Below, piece by piece: positions 735 through 50,600 of a stretch of DNA of 64,000 nt. The notes under the pieces are model-generated. The model saw nothing but the letters and a program-made list of their open reading frames with translations, was not told the origin of the DNA and ran no database searches. The translations under genes and the position numbers were made by a program. This stretch comes from Sphingomonas ginsenosidivorax (GTDB lineage Bacteria; Pseudomonadota; Alphaproteobacteria; Sphingomonadales; Sphingomonadaceae), in contig NZ_VOQR01000001.1 of assembly GCF_007995065.1 (NCBI RefSeq), positions 2,049,001-2,113,000 of the forward strand. Reading direction: 5' to 3'. Position 1 is the first letter of the stretch, and each line of letters opens with the position of its first letter.

Positions 735-753
735 CACCGGCCCGCCCCGCGTC

Positions 754-837
754 CGTCATCCCGGGCTCGTCCCGGGATCCAGGGTAACGAGCGACACCGC
801 CTGTAACTCTGGATCCCGGGACAAGCCCGGGATGACG
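754..837. repeat. REP-like palindromic repeat, family A (copy 1)
   Basis: Two inverted arms, cgtcatcccgggctcgtccc near 754 and gggacaagcccgggatgacg ending at 837, flank a short variable centre. Each arm also has internal symmetry (cccggg), so the whole can fold into a large hairpin. The same arms recur at 5310-5393 and, diverged, at 16731-16813, 16851-16938, 33550-33643 and inside cobN at 50062-50143. Confidence 0.85.
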
Positions 838-886
838 AGGGCGGCGCAAGAACCGGAACTTTACGACTTCGGTCCATGAGGGCCGC

Positions 887-5302: not shown

Positions 5303-5309
5303 TACCGAC

Positions 5310-5393
5310 CGTCATCCCGGGCGTGTCCCGGGATCCAGGGTTACGGAGCGCAACGTTTGAAACTCTGGATCCCGGGACAAGCCCGGGATGACG
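5310..5393. repeat. REP-like palindromic repeat, family A (copy 2)
   Basis: Arms cgtcatcccgggcgtgtccc and gggacaagcccgggatgacg around a variable centre, almost identical to the copy at 754-837. It sits between two convergent genes, the usual place for REP elements, and may also act as a bidirectional transcription or mRNA-stability barrier. Confidence 0.85.
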
Positions 5394-5403
5394 AAGGCGG
5401 ACT

Positions 5404-6044: not shown

Positions 6045-6521
6045 TCAGATGAATTCGATCTTCGACACGACGTAATAGCGGTCACCCGACGGCACCGTCA
6101 CCTCGACCTCTTCGTCGAGCTTGCGCCCGATCAGCCCGCGACCGAGCGGCGAGTTGTACGAGATTCGGCCCGACTTGGCGTTCGCCTCGGTCTGGCCGAC
6201 GATCTGGTAGGTCACCGGCTTGTCGTTCTCGTCGAGCAACGTCACCGTCGCGCCGAACACGACCTTGTCGCCCGACAGGTCCTTCGGGTCGATGATCTGC
6301 GCGCGCGACAGCTTGTCCTCGATGTCCGAGATCGACGCCTCGACTTGGCCCTGGCGCTCCTTCGCCGCGTGATATTCCGCGTTCTCGCTCAGGTCGCCAT
6401 GCGCGCGCGCTTCCTCGATCGCGTCGACGATCGTCGGACGTTCGGCTTTCAGGCGCTTGAGGTCCGCACTGAGCGTCTCATAGCCTTCCTGCAGCATCGG
6501 CATCTTCTCGACGGTCGCCAT
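6045..6521 (-). CDS. greA: transcription elongation factor GreA
   Basis: 158 residues, the normal GreA length. The N-terminal coiled coil carries [19 protein letters not shown], whose acidic tip inserts into the RNA polymerase secondary channel to stimulate cleavage of backtracked RNA. The C-terminal FKBP-like domain ends [20 protein letters not shown] then [13 protein letters not shown]. The start [14 protein letters not shown] at 6521 fits the family; the frame stays open upstream to 6584. Gene order carA-X-carB-greA-rhomboid on one strand suggests a common transcription unit, with a 74-bp gap between carB and greA. Confidence 0.96.
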
Positions 6522-6595
6522 GTCTTCGTCCCCAAATTCCATATCCCCGCGCGAATCACAGGGATTCGCCCGCACATCTCGCAACTATGTCGGGA

Positions 6596-9928
<3,333 letters not shown>

Positions 9929-10352: not shown

Positions 10353-11614
10353 CGAAGCGATCCCACAAACCGTTCAAACAGATACAAGCTATCCTGCGGC
10401 CCCGGACTTGCCTCGGGATGATACTGCACGCTGAACGCGTTGCGGTCGGTCAGTTCGAGACCCGCATTCGACCCGTCGAACAGCGACACGTGCGTCTCGC
10501 GGACGTTGGCGGGCAGGCTGTCGCGCTCGACCGCGAAGCCGTGGTTCATGCTGGTGATCTCGACCGTGCCGTCGGACAGCCGCTTGACCGGATGGTTGGC
10601 GCCGCGGTGGCCCTGGAACATCTTGGTCGTCGTCGCGCCGACCGCGAGCGCGAGCAGCTGGTGGCCGAGGCAGATGCCGAACAGCGGCTTGCCCGTCTCC
10701 AGCAGCTGGCGGATCACCGGCACGGCGTATTCGCCGGTCGCCGCGGGATCGCCGGGGCCGTTCGACAGGAAGATGCCGTCGGGCTCCAGCGCCATCACCT
10801 GCTCGAACGTCGCGGTCGCGGGCACCACCGATACCTTCGACCCCGCATCAGCAAGGTTGCGGAAGATATTGCGCTTGCTGCCGTAATCGATCGCAACGAC
10901 GTGCGGCTTCTGCTCCCCTCCCGCTTGCGGGAGGGGTTGGGGGAGGGCCTGTCCATCAGCGCCGTCGTTCGGGGACAGGCCCTCCCCTAACCCCTCCCGC
11001 AGGCGGGAGGGGGATTCTCCGTAGCCGAAACCCAGCTTCCAGATCCCGCCGTCCCAACCGTAATGCGTCTCGGTCGACACCGCCTTCGCGAGGTCCATCC
11101 CCTCGAGCCCCGGCCAGCCGCGCGCCATCTCGACCAGCGCGGGGATGTCGAACTGTCCTTCCGCCGAATGCGCGATCACCGCGTTGGGGGCCCCACCCAC
11201 CCGGATCCGCCGCGTCAGCGCGCGCGTATCGACGCCCGACAGGCCGATGCGCGCGTGACGCTTCATCCAGCCGTCGAGGTTCTCGACCGCGCGGAAGTTC
11301 GACGGCGCGGTGACGTCCTCGCGGACGATGATGCCGAGCGCATGGGGATCGTCCGCCTCGATGTCGTCGGGGTTCGCGCCGACATTGCCGATATGCGGGA
11401 AGGTGAAGCAGATCATCTGGCCGGCGAAGGACGGATCGGTCAGCACCTCCTGATAGCCGGTCATCGCGGTGTGGAAGCACACTTCGCCGACCGCGGTGCC
11501 TTCGGCGCCCAACCCGCGGCCCCAGATCACGTCACCACTCGCGAGGACCAGGACGCCGGTGGCGCCCCCCGGCTGCTCGGTGGCGCGCATGGCTATTGGC
11601 TTGGTGTCGGCCAT
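10349..11614 (-). CDS. carA: carbamoyl-phosphate synthase small subunit, with in-frame repeat insertion
   Basis: About 421 residues from ATG 11614; a GTG at 11626 is the alternative. The N-terminal small-chain domain has CFHTAMTGYQEVLTDPSF and GLSGVDTRALTRRIR. The C-terminal class I glutamine amidotransferase has the nucleophile in FGICLGHQLLALA, plus FLSNGPGDPA and VQYHPEASPGP. It supplies ammonia from glutamine to CarB. About 34 extra residues (ESPSRLREGLGEGL to LPQPLPQAGGEQ) lie exactly in the inter-domain linker and are encoded by a repeat pair at 10913-11014. The reading frame is intact, so the enzyme should be functional. Divergent from the yqeY-like gene. Confidence 0.96.
   Translation of the reverse strand: MADTKPIAMRATEQPGGATGVLVLASGDVIWGRGLGAEGTAVGEVCFHTAMTGYQEVLTDPSFAGQMICFTFPHIGNVGANPDDIEADDPHALGIIVREDVTAPSNFRAVENLDGWMKRHARIGLSGVDTRALTRRIRVGGAPNAVIAHSAEGQFDIPALVEMARGWPGLEGMDLAKAVSTETHYGWDGGIWKLGFGYGESPSRLREGLGEGLSPNDGADGQALPQPLPQAGGEQKPHVVAIDYGSKRNIFRNLADAGSKVSVVPATATFEQVMALEPDGIFLSNGPGDPAATGEYAVPVIRQLLETGKPLFGICLGHQLLALAVGATTTKMFQGHRGANHPVKRLSDGTVEITSMNHGFAVERDSLPANVRETHVSLFDGSNAGLELTDRNAFSVQYHPEASPGPQDSLYLFERFVGSLR
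10913..11014. repeat. REP-like repeat family B, inverted pair lying inside carA
   Basis: Two copies of a ctcccctcccgc-tt-gcgggagggg hairpin with tails ttgggggagggc and gccctcccctaa are arranged head-to-head at 10913-10954 and 10972-11014. The pair spans about 102 bp (34 codons) without breaking the carA frame. The same hairpin and tail occur at 12205-12382 and 12731-12770. Confidence 0.9.
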
Positions 11615-11753: not shown

Positions 11754-12206
11754 ATGATTCGCGACGACATCAAGGCTGCCCAGATCACCGCGATGAAGGC
11801 GGGCGACAAGGACACGCGAAACACCGTCAGCCTGATCCAGTCCGCGATCAAGAACCGCGACATCGAGGCACGCACCGGCAAGGCGCCCGAGAGCGACGAC
11901 GCGCTGGTGATCGAGGTGCTGCAGAAGATGGTGAAGCAGCGCCGGGAGTCGATCGACATGTTCACCAAGGGTGGCCGCCAGGAACTGGCCGACGCCGAGA
12001 CCGCCGAGGTCGCGGTCATCGAACGCTTCCTGCCGCAGCAGATGAGCGAGGCGGCGACGTCGGCCGCGATCGAGGCGATCAAGGCGGAGCTGGGGGCTGC
12101 GGGGATGAAGGACATGGGCCGCGTCATGGCGGAACTGAAGGCGCGCCACGCGAGCGAGCTCGACATGAGCAAGGCCAGCGGGCTGGTGAAGGCGGCGTTG
12201 TCTTAA
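11754..12206 (+). CDS. GatB/YqeY domain-containing protein
   Basis: 150 residues, the typical stand-alone YqeY length. Landmarks are MIRDDIKAAQITAMKAGDKD, SLIQSAIKNRDIEARTGK, VLQKMVKQRRESIDMFTKG, IERFLPQQMSEA and the C-terminal MKDMGRVMAELKARHASELD. The domain resembles the tRNA-binding tail of GatB; the free-standing proteins lie near dnaG/rpoD in many bacteria, as here, and may act in tRNA-related quality control, though this is not settled. Divergently transcribed from carA across about 139 bp. Confidence 0.92.
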   Translation: MIRDDIKAAQITAMKAGDKDTRNTVSLIQSAIKNRDIEARTGKAPESDDALVIEVLQKMVKQRRESIDMFTKGGRQELADAETAEVAVIERFLPQQMSEAATSAAIEAIKAELGAAGMKDMGRVMAELKARHASELDMSKASGLVKAALS

Positions 12207-12382
12207 GCGGACAGGCCCTCCCCTAACCCCTCCCGCAAGCGGGAGGGGAAGATGACGACTCCCCTCCCGCAGGCCGGAGGGGAATATGATGGCTCCCCTC
12301 CCGCCTTTAGGAAGGGCATGCTACCATCGTAGGCGGGCGCAACACACTCCCCTCCCGCCTGCGGGAGGGGTTGGGGGAGGGC
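12205..12382. repeat. cluster of family B REP-like repeats
   Basis: At least three, probably four, copies of the cccctcccgcNNgcgggagggg hairpin lie between the yqeY-like stop and the DUF559 start. A forward copy with the tail gccctcccctaa is at about 12213-12250, shortened copies are near 12258-12283 and 12292-12318 (the last degenerate), and an inverted copy with the tail ttgggggagggc is at 12347-12382. The outer two face each other, as in REP pairs. The last tail serves as the Shine-Dalgarno sequence of the next gene. Confidence 0.88.
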
Positions 12383-12772
12383 ATGTCGGACAAAGTCTAT
12401 AACCGCCCCACAGCCCGCTCTCGCGAATTGCGCGCGAACATAACGTTACCCGAGCAGCGCCTATGGGGGTGCCTCAGCGCGCGGAAGGTTGGCGGCGTAC
12501 GGTTCAACCGACAGTTCCCTATCGGGCCGTTCGTCTGCGACTTCGTATCGCGCGGCGCGAAGCTCGTGATCGAGGTGGACGGCGACAGCCACGGCCATAG
12601 CGAACGTGCCGATGCCGCCCGGACGCGCTACATCGAAGATATGGGATACCGCGTGATTCGCTTCTGGAACAACGACGTCATGGAGCGGCTGGAAGGCGTG
12701 GTCGGCGAAATCGAACGGGTGTTGGGGGACAGCCCCTCCCCCAGCCCCTCCCGCGAAGCGGGAGGGGAGTGA
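12383..12772 (+). CDS. DUF559 domain protein, Vsr-like (PD-(D/E)XK-type) endonuclease
   Basis: About 129 residues from ATG 12383, with gggggaggg as ribosome binding site; a TTG at 12371 is less likely. The fold is recognisable from ARSRELRANITLPEQRLWG, VRFNRQFPIGPFVCDFV, LVIEVDGDSHGHSERADAAR and YRVIRFWNNDVMERLEGVV, where the Glu/Asp of the IEVDGDSH segment are the likely metal ligands. DUF559 proteins are relatives of very-short-patch repair nucleases; their cellular role is unclear. The C-terminal tail (GDSPSPSPSREAGGE) and the ribosome binding site are both repeat sequence, so the gene is bounded by family B repeats. The stop is one base before dnaG. Confidence 0.85.
   Translation: MSDKVYNRPTARSRELRANITLPEQRLWGCLSARKVGGVRFNRQFPIGPFVCDFVSRGAKLVIEVDGDSHGHSERADAARTRYIEDMGYRVIRFWNNDVMERLEGVVGEIERVLGDSPSPSPSREAGGE
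12731..12770. repeat. family B REP-like repeat forming the end of the DUF559 gene
   Basis: The sequence agcccctcccgcgaagcggg and its continuation aggggag repeat the family B hairpin. It encodes the last 13 or so residues of the DUF559 protein and runs up to its stop at 12772. Confidence 0.82.
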
Positions 12773-16703: not shown

Positions 16704-16730
16704 GCATCCCTGGCCGTCACTCCCCCCTTC

Positions 16731-16813
16731 CGTCATCCTGACGAACGTTAGGATCCAGAGCCCCAAACGATATCGCCCGAAACCCTGGATCCCGGGTCAA
16801 GCCCGGGATGACG
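16731..16813. repeat. REP-like palindromic repeat, family A (copy 3, asymmetric)
   Basis: The left arm cgtcatcctgacgaacgtta has diverged, while the right arm gggtcaagcccgggatgacg is the standard form. Together with the next copy and the terminator it fills most of the 338-bp gene-free stretch 16669-17006, in which I see no other feature. Confidence 0.75.
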
Positions 16814-16850
16814 GGGGCGGCGAATGGCACCACCTGGCCCCATCACCCCC

Positions 16851-16938
16851 CGTCATGCTGAACTCGTTTCAGCATCCACCCGTCCACAAGCGTCAGCACC
16901 TGAGGCGAGATGGACCCTGAAACGAGTTCAGGGTGACG
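16851..16938. repeat. REP-like palindromic repeat, family A variant (copy 4)
   Basis: Arms cgtcatgctgaactcgtttc and gaaacgagttcagggtgacg flank a variable centre. This is the ctgaactcgtttcag sub-type, the same sub-type as the copy inside cobN. Confidence 0.82.
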
Positions 16939-17006
16939 GTGGATTAAGCGCGAGCGCCCGGGCCCGCCTCACCCGTCAGAAAGCCGGATCAACGCCCGCG
17001 AACCCG

Positions 17007-33520: not shown

Positions 33521-33549
33521 TCGCGACTGGCTGAGGGTCGCCTACCCTC

Positions 33550-33643
33550 CGTCATGCCGGACTTGGTCCGGCATCCATCGTGCCGCATACTCGAACGTTC
33601 GGGAATTGCGGTGCCATGGACCCCGGACCAAGTCCGGGGTGAC
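33550..33643. repeat. REP-like palindromic repeat, family A variant (copy 5)
   Basis: Arms cgtcatgccggacttggtcc and ggaccaagtccggggtgacg around a variable centre, the acttggtcc sub-type. It lies between convergent paoC and the queuosine-precursor transporter gene. Confidence 0.8.
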
Positions 33644-33682
33644 GGAACGTGCGGGTCGATAGGCACTCCTAATCGACGATAT

Positions 33683-47698: not shown

Positions 47699-50600
47699 TG
47701 CATCTGCTGGCTGCCACCCCGGGCACGGTATCGAACGGCGACGAGGCGATCGACCTCGACCAGTCGCCGGGCGATATCGTGATCCTGACGGTGGCGGACA
47801 GCGACCTCGCCTGTTTCGCGCGCGCGGCCGAGACGATCGGCACCGGCGAGGACGGGCGCCCGAGTGTGCGGCTCGCCAACCTGCTCCAGCTCAAGCACCC
47901 CTATTCGGTCGACCTCTATGTCGAGAAGGTCGTCGCGCACGCGCGCTTCGTCTGCGTCGTGCTGCTCGGCGGCAAGAGCTACTGGCCGTACGGCGTGGAC
48001 GAGATCGCCGCCGTCGCGCGCGCGCGCGGCATCGCCTTCGCCGCCGTCGCCGAGGGACACGAGGTCGACCCCGCGCTCGACGCCGCCTCGACGGTATCGT
48101 CCGACGTCCTCCACCGCCTGCGCGACTATCTCCGCCAGGGCGGCGTCGCCAACGCGACCGGGTTCCTCAAGACCGCCGCGAGGCTGATCGGCCGCGACAT
48201 CGGGCTGCCCGACGATCCCGTGCCGTTGCCCGACGCCGGGCTGTATGTGCGTGGGATCGAGCGGCCGACGCTCGACGATGCCCGCGCGAACTGGGTCGCG
48301 GGACGCCCGGTCGCGCTGCTCGTCTTCTACCGCGCGCTTGTCGCGGCGGGGACGCTCGACGCGGTCGACGCGATGACCGCGGCGTTTCGCGCACGCGGGC
48401 TCAACGTGCTCGCCGCGCATGTCCGCTCGCTGCGCGAACCCTATGCGGTCGACTGGCTCGGCGGCCTCATCGACGCGCAGGGCCCCGACGTGATCGTCAA
48501 CGCGACCGCGTTCGCCGCGACCTCGCCGGGCGACAATCGCGTCCCCGGCGTGCTCGAACGCGCCGACTGCCCGATCCTCCAGGTCGCATTCGCGGGCGTG
48601 GAGGAGGCGAACTGGGCGGGGTCGGCGCGGGGTCTAGGGCCGCGCGACCTGGCGATGAATATCGCACTGCCCGAGGTCGACGGCCGCATCTTCACGCGCG
48701 CGGTCGCGTTCAAGGCCGCCGAGCGGTTCGACGCGTGCACCGAATGCGGCATCGTCGTGCCGCGCGTCGTCGCCGACCGGGTCGACTTCGTTGCCCGGCT
48801 CGCAGCGAACTGGGCGACGCTGCGGCAGACCCCGGTGGCGGAGCGCCGCGTCGGACTGGTGCTCGCCAACTATCCCAATCGCGACGGGCGGATCGGCAAC
48901 GGCGTCGGGCTCGACACGCCGGAGAGCGCCGTCGCGATCCTGACGGCGCTGGGCGAGGCCGGGTATGCCACCGACGGCCCACCCGGTGACGGTGCCACAC
49001 TGATGGACGCGATGCTCGCCGGCCGCACCAACGACCTCGGCTCCGTCGGTCGCGCGCGCGAAACGCTATCGCTCGAAGACTACGCCGAAGCCTTCGCCGC
49101 GCTCCCCGCCGCGGCGCGCGCGGCGATGACCGATCGCTGGGGCGCCCCCGAAGCCGACCCGTTCGTGCAGGATGGCGCGTTCCAGCTCGCGGTCCACCGC
49201 TTCGGCCATGTCGCGGTCGCAGTGCAGCCCGCGCGCGGCTACAATATCGATGCCAAGGCGACCTATCACGACCCCGCGCTGCCGCCGCCGCACGCCTATC
49301 TCGCCTTCCACGTCTGGCTCGACCGCAGCTTCCGCGCGCAGGCGATCGTCCATGTCGGCAAGCACGGCAATCTCGAATGGCTGCCCGGCAAGGCGCTCGC
49401 GCTCTCGGACACGTGCTTCCCCGAGATCTGCGCCGGCCCCGTGCCGCAACTCTACCCCTTCATCGTCAACGACCCCGGCGAAGGCACGCAGGCCAAGCGC
49501 CGCATCGGCGCAGTGATCGTCGACCACCTGACGCCACCGCTGACCCGCGCCGAAAGCTATGGTCCGCTGAAACAGCTCGAGGCGCTGGTCGACGAATATT
49601 ACCTCGCCGCCGGGATGGACCCGCGGCGGATCGACCGCCTGCGCCGCGACATCCTGCAGCTCGCGCAAGGCGCCGGGCTCGACGTCGACGCCGGCATGGT
49701 CGGCGACGGCGACGACGCGCTCGCCGCGCTCGATACCTATCTGTGCGAGCTGAAGGAAATGCAGATCCGCGACGGGCTGCACGTCTTCACCCGCTCGCCC
49801 GAAGGCCGGCTGCGCCGCGACCTGCTCGTCGCGCTCGCCCGCACCCCGCGGGGGTACGACACGCCCGGCCAAGCCTCGCTGCTGCGCGCGATGGCCGACG
49901 ATCTGGAGCTCGCGTTCGATCCGCTCGACTGCGTGATGGGCGACCCTTGGAATGGCGCGCGGCCAACCGTACTGGCGGAGGTGAGCGACGATCCGTGGCG
50001 AACCAAAGGCGACACCGTAGAACGCCTCGACCTGCTGGCAACCGCCCTCGTCTCCCCCCTCCGTCATCCTGAACTCGTTTCAGGATCCACCGAAAGGCTA
50101 GCGCCGGCGGACAGGTGGATCCTGAACCAAGTTCAGGATGACGGGGTTGGAGAACGGACGACCACCGTCCTCGCGAGCATCCGAAACGACCTCGCCCCCC
50201 GCGTCGACGCCTGCGGCCCCGCCGAGAAAGCCGCCCTCCTCGCCGGCCTGAACGGCCGCTTCGTCGCCCCCGGCCCCTCCGGCGCGCCCACCCGCGGCCG
50301 TCCCGAAGTCCTCCCCACCGGCCGCAACTTCTATTCCGTCGACACCCGCGCCGTACCCACAGCCGTCGCCTGGGACCTCGGCCAACGCTCCGCCGCGCTC
50401 CTCGTCGAGGATTATTTCCAGCGCGAGGGGGAATATCCCAAGGCGATGGCGCTCAGCGCCTGGGGCACCGCGAACATGCGCACCGGCGGCGACGACATCG
50501 CGCAGGCGCTCGCGCTGATGGGCGCGCGGCCCCGCTGGGACTGGACCTCGGGCCGCGTGATCGGGTTCGAGGTGATCAGCGTCACCGAACTCGGCCGCCC

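What the first reader, a model, noticed from the sequence alone, without database searches (positions are those of the whole stretch)
12205..12772. DUF559 nuclease gene bounded by REP-like repeats that supply its ribosome binding site and C-terminus
Seen: three or four family B hairpins immediately upstream, the last providing gggggaggg seven bases before the ATG, and another forming the last 13 codons and the stop. Established: REP elements are commonly mobilised by RAYT (IS200-like) transposases; DUF559 proteins are Vsr-like (PD-(D/E)XK) nucleases with no settled role. Inference: the DUF559 protein may be the RAYT-like partner that nicks or mobilises these repeats, a REP system with a different nuclease.
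Basis: partly seen in the sequence, partly recalled or inferred. Interest (0 to 1): 0.72.

Follow-up and report, generated by a model that had tools for sequence, protein, structure and literature searches.

The report
DUF559 nucleases carry their own REPs
Small Vsr-like nuclease genes of bacteria sit, far more often than other genes nearby, inside pairs of inverted hairpin repeats matched to them, which suggests that these nucleases are the missing partners of widespread 'orphan' palindromic repeats, much as RAYT transposases are for classical REPs.

Summary
In this Sphingomonas-like genome 6 of 7 DUF559 genes lie between inverted hairpin units (the seventh has them downstream only), with five or six hairpin types. 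In the family, 52 of 63 genes are bounded by inverted repeats against 2 of 810 other ORFs of the same regions; in a wider set 49 of 79 against 5 of 381. Three of these seven exceptions are a GIY-YIG nuclease, a Y1 (RAYT-like) transposase and another DUF559. Hairpin and protein co-vary. The unit, a hairpin plus mirrored purine tail, has BoxC/intrastrand-triplex architecture, an orphan repeat class; E. coli ycjD (DUF559) ends inside a BoxC unit. Dispersed copies are mostly inverted pairs about 80 bp apart (REPINs); the gene fills the spacer of such a pair, and one deleted intermediate exists. No Y1 transposase is found here. Stand-alone GIY-YIG nucleases pair likewise with CGTC-REPs, reported to lack a transposase. 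The association is near certain; that the nuclease mobilises the repeats is inferred, about 0.6. Against: repeats persist without the cognate gene; no movement was shown.

The parts
12383..12772 (+). DUF559 (Vsr-like PD-(D/E)XK) nuclease gene, 129 aa plus stop; start codon directly after the upstream repeat unit, last 14 codons inside the downstream unit
   Evidence: PF04480 E 5.7e-34; AlphaFold model pLDDT 82.6 matches 3hrl, homing endonuclease I-Bth0305I 3r3p and, more weakly, Vsr 1cw0
12347..12382 (+). upstream inward-facing REP/triplex-type unit: pyrimidine arm, loop, purine arm (hairpin 12350-12369) plus mirrored purine tail 12373-12382
12728..12766 (-). downstream inverted copy of the unit, encoding the protein's C-terminus
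12209..12249 (-). outer REP unit after yqeY (98% complementary to the REP at 10914-10954)
   Evidence: I5; hairpin 12228-12247
12261..12282 (.). hairpin with one mismatch
12295..12316 (.). degenerate hairpin (3 mismatches)
10914..11012 (.). family B REPIN (two inverted units, hairpins 76 bp apart) inserted in frame in carA
   Evidence: folds as DNA at -57.1 kcal/mol, z -12; many relatives lack an insert at this point of CarA
11754..12206 (+). yqeY (upstream neighbour)
   Evidence: PF09424
12773..14635 (+). dnaG (downstream neighbour)
   Evidence: PF08275 and PF01807

Best explanation
The locus is a REP-nuclease cassette: a DUF559 (Vsr-like) nuclease gene occupying the spacer of a REPIN, i.e. 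between two inverted, inward-facing copies of a repeat unit. Each unit is a GC-rich hairpin followed by a purine tail that mirrors the hairpin's purine arm, the architecture of BoxC / intrastrand-triplex motifs. Shown: the pairing of gene and inverted units is general in the family and extends to other Proteobacteria; hairpin type diverges with the protein; the same units occur dispersed, mostly as inverted pairs about 80 bp apart; one cassette type exists as two diverged copies in this genome, and an internally deleted form of it exists. Inferred: the nuclease recognises its own unit when it folds in single-stranded or supercoiled DNA and cuts at or beside it, and host repair or replication then copies the unit or pair into new places; REPINs are non-autonomous derivatives acted on in trans, while the gene is kept at a few stable sites, as RAYTs are. 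The fold is that of a metal-dependent hydrolytic nuclease, not of a tyrosine transposase, so strand joining would have to come from the host.
For: Inverted-repeat score >=16 in 52 of 63 DUF559 genes against 2 of 810 ORFs of the same 60 regions; 49 of 79 against 5 of 381 in 80 loci chosen by protein alone, one too short. Perfect stems >=9 within 150 bp on both sides: 36 of 63 against 5 of 802. Inward orientation: four-G-run strand on the coding strand upstream 33 of 63 and on the template strand downstream 38 of 63, on the opposite strands 3 and 4 of 63; controls 15, 12, 9 and 18 of 802. Mirrored tail: mirror fits better in 41 flanks, direct copy in 5, 52 ties or symmetric; second set 35, 7 and 65. 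Co-variation of protein and hairpin: rho 0.356 over 1102 pairs without homologous neighbours, p 0.002 with 499 permutations; within genomes r 0.278, p 0.031, 57 pairs. Cassette duplicated in this genome, 85% over 530 bp, ending 22-24 bp outside the hairpin units; the same hairpin type at spacings 449, 446, 255 and 98 bp, the 255-bp pair keeping both ends of the cassette without most of the middle. yqeY|dnaG: 11 of 26 readable junctions hold DUF559, each with at least two family-B-type hairpins; 15 lack it, two of them with only a 4-bp gap. No Y1 transposase match in this genome, matches in 3 of 41 genomes of the genus. E. coli: matching places median 16 in 37 chromosomes with ycjD, 11 in 22 without.
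Against: No movement was observed and there is no biochemistry. 8 of 27 genus genomes without DUF559 at the site keep 15-67 family B copies, and none of the 37 other DUF559 genes fetched from ten such genomes carries that hairpin. No strand-transfer chemistry is known (recalled) for this fold. Many cassettes sit at the same orthologous sites in different genera (74 of 1176 pairs have homologous neighbours), so they look vertically kept rather than mobile, and the genes counted are not independent. 11 of 63 and 30 of 79 genes fall under the threshold; by eye about 20 of the 30 have a hairpin on at least one side. Windows for DUF559 start at the domain ends and for controls 20 nt inside the ORF ends, so the geometry is close but not identical. 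The E. coli contrast is confounded with lineage: in three ycjD-less strains looked at, other genes stand beside sapF where ycjD and fabI are in the ycjD strains. The genus contrast is not corrected for phylogeny either.
Confidence: 0.6

Rival explanations
1. Host-serving structure nuclease. DUF559 has been domesticated as a Vsr-like repair enzyme that trims or repairs hairpins, triplexes or mismatches formed at these repeats; the flanking units are its targets and perhaps its autoregulatory element, and the repeats spread by another route.
For: Fold related to Vsr (E 0.012). A Caulobacter protein with a DUF559 domain, VsrA, causes an SOS response in cells lacking a cytosine methyltransferase and is proposed as a mismatch-repair endonuclease (PMC12907096, passages read). 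Genes often stay at conserved sites. Units abut the start (median 6 nt to the nearest possible ATG/GTG) and often hold the stop codon (31 of 52).
Against: Does not explain why the gene lies inside a REPIN with hairpin types that follow the protein, nor the duplicated and internally deleted cassettes.
Confidence: 0.2
2. Homing by gene conversion. The nuclease cuts unit-free or cognate alleles, and repair from the cassette copies it, as a free-standing homing endonuclease would; REPINs are by-products of such repair.
For: After the Neisseria endonuclease-like protein 3hrl, the best fold match is the homing endonuclease I-Bth0305I (by sequence E 0.0078). Presence and absence at the same site yqeY|dnaG in one genus.
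Against: REPINs lie at many sites of this genome with variable spacers, which homing to one site does not give.
Confidence: 0.12
3. Passenger or neighbourhood effect: repeats accumulate in intergenic space beside any short, patchily distributed gene, and DUF559 has no role in them.
For: Repeats persist in genomes without the cognate gene. Y1-free controls were ORFs in general, not a matched set of short accessory genes.
Against: Other ORFs in the same loci are almost never bounded this way (2 of 810, 5 of 381), and three of the seven exceptions are a GIY-YIG nuclease, a Y1 transposase and another DUF559. Type specificity and co-variation are not expected.
Confidence: 0.05

Closest known systems
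REP / REPIN - RAYT (TnpA-REP) systems, 'REPtrons'
   Same: Short hairpin repeats, many in inverted pairs, dispersed in tens of copies or more; a small DNA-cutting protein whose gene is bounded by repeat copies and often vertically kept; protein and repeat type matched; repeats more numerous where the gene is present (PMC8049555, PMC8266576, PMC3733652: passages read).
   Different: Unrelated protein (Vsr-like PD-(D/E)XK fold, no Y1 domain); a hairpin with a mirrored purine tail instead of a GTAG-tagged hairpin; cutting of the cognate repeat is shown for RAYTs (PMC8266576, passages) but untested here.
BoxC / PIT / TM-ECO intrastrand triplex repeats
   Same: Pyrimidine arm, loop, purine arm, purine third strand; occur also as inverted pairs; E. 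coli ycjD (DUF559) ends inside one and has a second about 170 bp downstream.
   Different: Described without an assigned function and without association with mobile elements (PMC4666352, sections 16 and 18 read); 'nuclease', 'ycjD', 'DUF559' and 'vsr' do not occur in its main text. The window's unit does not fit the exact TM-ECO pattern.
CGTC-tagged REPs
   Same: Hairpin repeats of alphaproteobacteria, also in this window and genome.
   Different: A separate repeat class. Reported to lack a dedicated transposase (PMC3733652, first part and passages read; no 'GIY-YIG' or 'DUF559' in its main text); here they flank many stand-alone GIY-YIG nuclease genes.
Vsr and I-Bth0305I-type nucleases
   Same: Fold of DUF559.
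   Different: Vsr acts in mismatch repair and I-Bth0305I is an intron homing enzyme (PDB titles, and recall); neither is known to me to be flanked by dispersed hairpins (recalled, not searched).

Membership tests
RAYT / REPtron | Y1 (HUH) tyrosine transposase, PF01797 | tested here: not met
   The protein is PF04480, fold PD-(D/E)XK type; no PF01797 match in the genome
RAYT / REPtron | gene bounded by inverted copies of dispersed hairpin repeats that also occur as inverted pairs | tested here: met
   bounding; 83 copies; 26 of the 28 short gaps among the 67 listed are 69-90 bp; 16 pairs read
RAYT / REPtron | GTAG tag beside the hairpin | tested here: not met
   by reading: no GTAG in the window units; of 16 REPINs read, L401 alone has GTAG in its linker
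RAYT / REPtron | protein binds and cuts its cognate REP | not testable with these tools
   needs purified protein
DUF559 (PF04480) | profile match over the curated cut-off, conserved residues | tested here: met
   116.7 bits, cut-off 20.6; invariant columns of alignment A2 present
Intrastrand purine-motif triplex repeat | third purine strand that mirrors the purine arm | tested here: met
   mirror better in 41, direct better in 5, 52 ties or symmetric; window units printed there
Intrastrand purine-motif triplex repeat | physical triplex formation | not testable with these tools
   reported for the E. coli motif in PMC4666352 (abstract, section heading), not for this unit
TM-ECO (BoxC) exact pattern | CCCTCNCCCN3-6GGGNGAGGGN3GGGNGAGGG | tested here: not met
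   by reading: window unit has CCCCTCCCGC arms; same architecture, other sequence

The most novel reading that the evidence does not exclude
REP systems are a general way of life for small stand-alone nucleases of unrelated folds. Besides RAYTs, DUF559 nucleases own the BoxC/intrastrand-triplex repeats, and stand-alone GIY-YIG nucleases own the CGTC-REPs; each nuclease clade recognises the folded form of its own repeat and spreads it, with the nuclease gene as the autonomous REPIN. Both orphan repeat classes would thereby get their missing enzyme.
Probability: 0.5. Interest if true: 0.92.

Novelty: new variant of a known kind. Interest (0 to 1): 0.85.

Why it matters
BoxC/triplex repeats have been known since the 1990s without an assigned function (PMC4666352), and CGTC-REPs were stated in 2013 to lack a dedicated transposase (PMC3733652). 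A matched nuclease for each makes the question of how these repeats arise directly testable, including in laboratory E. coli K-12 with ycjD. It would also suggest a role for DUF559, a nuclease family of unknown function found here in 53 of 59 genomes of the family and 98 of 249 of the phylum, and it would show that REP systems arose more than once from unrelated enzymes. Practically, such genes could be annotated as REP-associated.

Tried and rejected
Considered and dropped: RAYT as mobiliser of the repeats (no Y1 match in the genome; 3 of 41 in the genus). Anti-phage defence role: no PADLOC match for two DUF559 domains and one GIY-YIG domain, which does not exclude it. Hairpins as mere terminators: does not explain the unit before the start, its inward orientation or the types that follow the protein. 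G-quadruplex as the main structure: the purine strand often has four G-runs, but the mirrored tail fits the triplex description better; not decided. A clean E. coli empty site was sought and not found: three strains without ycjD have other genes beside sapF. GIY-YIG beyond the genus: 7 of 26 phylum-wide loci score >=16, so the pairing is lineage-restricted. Not tested: weaker DUF559 matches. Of those listed, 63 were examined: all of at least 98.7 bits (61) plus two weaker ones lying in the same regions; the longer, lower-scoring type (about 185-230 aa frames, E about 1e-15) was left out. The genus matches were read only in part.

Full report
What is there. The DUF559 gene (12383-12772) lies between yqeY and dnaG, with four hairpins of the CCCTCCCGC..GCGGGAGGG type before it (two perfect, one with a mismatch, one degenerate) and one forming its C-terminus. 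The genome holds 83 exact hairpins and none of the pattern read backwards. Of the 67 listed there, successive copies give 28 gaps under 150 bp, 26 of them 69-90 bp: pairs, i.e. REPINs. One pair sits in frame in carA (10914-11012) and folds into one long hairpin, -57.1 kcal/mol, z -12. The repeat at the gene's start matches one carA REP at 95% over 41 nt. Sixteen pairs of this genome read in full have the form hairpin - tail - about 25 variable bases - inverted tail - hairpin; the DUF559 gene occupies the place of the variable bases.

Is it more than chance. This genome has 7 DUF559 matches. Six have inverted units on both sides and one (L006) only downstream, of five or six types; L003 and L007 share one. 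I took 60 regions of up to 20 kb around 63 genes: the 61 matches with at least 98.7 bits plus two weaker ones in the same regions. I scored the best local match between 250 bp upstream and the reverse complement of 250 bp downstream. Score >=16: 52 of 63 genes against 2 of 810 ORFs of at least 90 aa in the same regions; >=20: 43 against 1. In 80 loci found by protein similarity alone, 49 of 79 against 5 of 381, one locus too short; these are mainly alpha-, beta- and gammaproteobacteria, and a MAG labelled Nitrospinota is among the positives. MAGs labelled Eisenbacteria and Dehalococcoidia show hairpins but score 12 and 13. The seven control exceptions are informative: L068 (about 6331-6658) is a GIY-YIG protein, L306 (5003-5555) a Y1 transposase (24.0 bits, just over the cut-off of 23), L321 (1792-2167) another DUF559; the others look by eye like citrate synthase, a dihydropyrimidinase-like gene, a short ORF beside DUF559 and an antisense ORF.

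What the unit is. The purine-rich strand of the unit faces the gene on both sides (33 and 38 of 63; opposite strands 3 and 4 of 63). The tail after the hairpin mirrors the purine arm rather than copying it (41 against 5, 52 ties or symmetric; second set 35 against 7, 65 ties or symmetric). A mirrored, antiparallel purine third strand is what the purine-motif intrastrand triplex calls for. The motif has the architecture of BoxC / PIT / TM-ECO repeats, 3610 copies in 262 proteobacterial genomes by PMC4666352 (abstract, outline, sections 16 and 18 and passages read), for which no function or mobile-element link was found; 'nuclease', 'ycjD', 'DUF559' and 'vsr' do not occur in its main text. E. 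coli ycjD is annotated as DUF559, and in the two records read its stop codon lies in such a unit, with a second one about 170 bp on. Sixty rows were taken evenly down the ranking of 5375 records matching ycjD plus its two BoxC units; one, a plasmid-sized record, was dropped. Matching places per chromosome are median 16 (10-24) in 37 with ycjD, the ycjD place included, and 11 (1-16) in 22 without, p 1.6e-7. ycjD matches in 3365 of 5426 genomes. This is confounded with lineage.

Specificity. Protein identity and hairpin similarity correlate (rho 0.389 over 1176 pairs of 49 genes with score >=18; 0.356 over the 1102 pairs whose neighbours are not homologous; p 0.002 with 499 permutations) and also within genomes (r 0.278, p 0.031, 57 pairs in 13 genomes). 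Family B hairpins go with the genes at yqeY|dnaG: each of 11 such genes in the genus has at least two in the gap, and three more have exact matches on both sides (one) or on one side (two). None of 37 other DUF559 genes in ten genomes carrying 4-67 family B copies has it within 260 bp; five further listed matches of these genomes were not fetched.

Presence and absence. Of 30 dnaG loci of the genus (of 41 genomes searched), 26 show the yqeY|dnaG junction: 11 with the cassette, 15 without, of which two have a 4-bp gap and three a single hairpin remnant (L131, L141; L146 by eye). Family B copies are median 32 (2-83, the cassette's own included) in 14 genomes with the gene at this site and 0 (0-67) in 27 without, p 3.6e-4. 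Eight of the 27 keep 15-67 copies; in one (G340) the contig begins near dnaG, and in two (G326, G315) yqeY is not found upstream, so their state is uncertain. A second cassette type exists twice in this genome (L003, L007; 85% over 530 bp, ending 22-24 bp outside the hairpin units; the L007 copy has two stops). Its hairpin type occurs ten times: at spacings 449, 446, 255 and 98 bp, plus two singles. The 255-bp pair keeps both ends of the cassette and lacks most of the middle. This reads as a series from autonomous element to REPIN.

The enzyme. AlphaFold gives pLDDT 82.6. The best solved folds are 3hrl (endonuclease-like, Neisseria), the homing endonuclease I-Bth0305I, and further down Vsr, E 0.012. 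The invariant residues E24, D53, E64, D66 and H70 are in the window's protein, so it looks like an active nuclease. A Caulobacter protein with a DUF559 domain, VsrA, triggers an SOS response when a cytosine methylase is missing (PMC12907096, passages), which fits nuclease activity in the cell; whether it belongs to the same clade was not tested.

A second pair. Next to dnaG, G331 has, instead of DUF559, a GIY-YIG gene between inverted CCGTTCG repeats; G302 and G307 have a GIY-YIG match directly before dnaG by coordinates. GIY-YIG genes of the genus score >=16 in 21 of 30 best-hit loci and in 17 of 18 stand-alone ones fetched afterwards, one of which (L254 = L226) was already in the 30; so 37 of 47 in all. 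In this genome it is 7 of 7. A CGTC-type tag stands on both sides in 13 of the 18, against 37 of 2400 random placements. Two UvrC genes score 10 and 8. Phylum-wide it is 7 of 26, two of 28 new loci being too short. [quoted passage not shown]

How it most likely works. Shown: the architecture, its generality, its specificity and its derivatives. Inferred: cutting of the folded cognate unit by the nuclease, with copying by host repair or replication, REPINs being served in trans. I give this 0.6. The repeats that persist without the gene, the stable orthologous sites and the lack of known joining chemistry are the main points against.

Known or not. In the held library I found no paper that ties DUF559 or GIY-YIG to REPs, judging by the listings (titles and abstract starts) and by the passages read in five papers. 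Most subscription papers and all preprints are missing from it.

Noticed in passing
window 750-844, 5306-5400, 16726-16942, 33545-33646, 50057-50144: CGTC-tagged REPs, mostly as inverted pairs (CGTCATCCCGGG.. and CCGTCATCCTGAACTCGTTTCAGGATCCACC types); in this genus such repeats flank many stand-alone GIY-YIG nuclease genes.
   Followed up: yes
L223 (G331); G302 and G307 by coordinates: The site before dnaG holds a GIY-YIG gene (in G331 with CCGTTCG-type inverted repeats) in place of the DUF559 cassette.
   Followed up: partly
window 10914-11012 and CarA of L141, L175, L170, L071, L075, L146: One linker of CarA carries in-frame, REP-like inserts of different kinds in different relatives and none in many others: an in-frame insertion hot spot.
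   Followed up: partly
L080:9819-10574: Two DUF559 domains in one reading frame with a hairpin repeat in the linker; the second domain seems to have lost conserved residues.
   Followed up: no
L083 and L089, DUF559 flanks: A repeat unit is itself split by another palindrome inserted in its hairpin.
   Followed up: no
L396-L411 (family B REPINs of this genome): Two tail subtypes, GGGGAGGGCCTGTCC and GGGGGTGGGCTCGCGC; the second may belong to another, unseen or lost, DUF559 gene.
   Followed up: no
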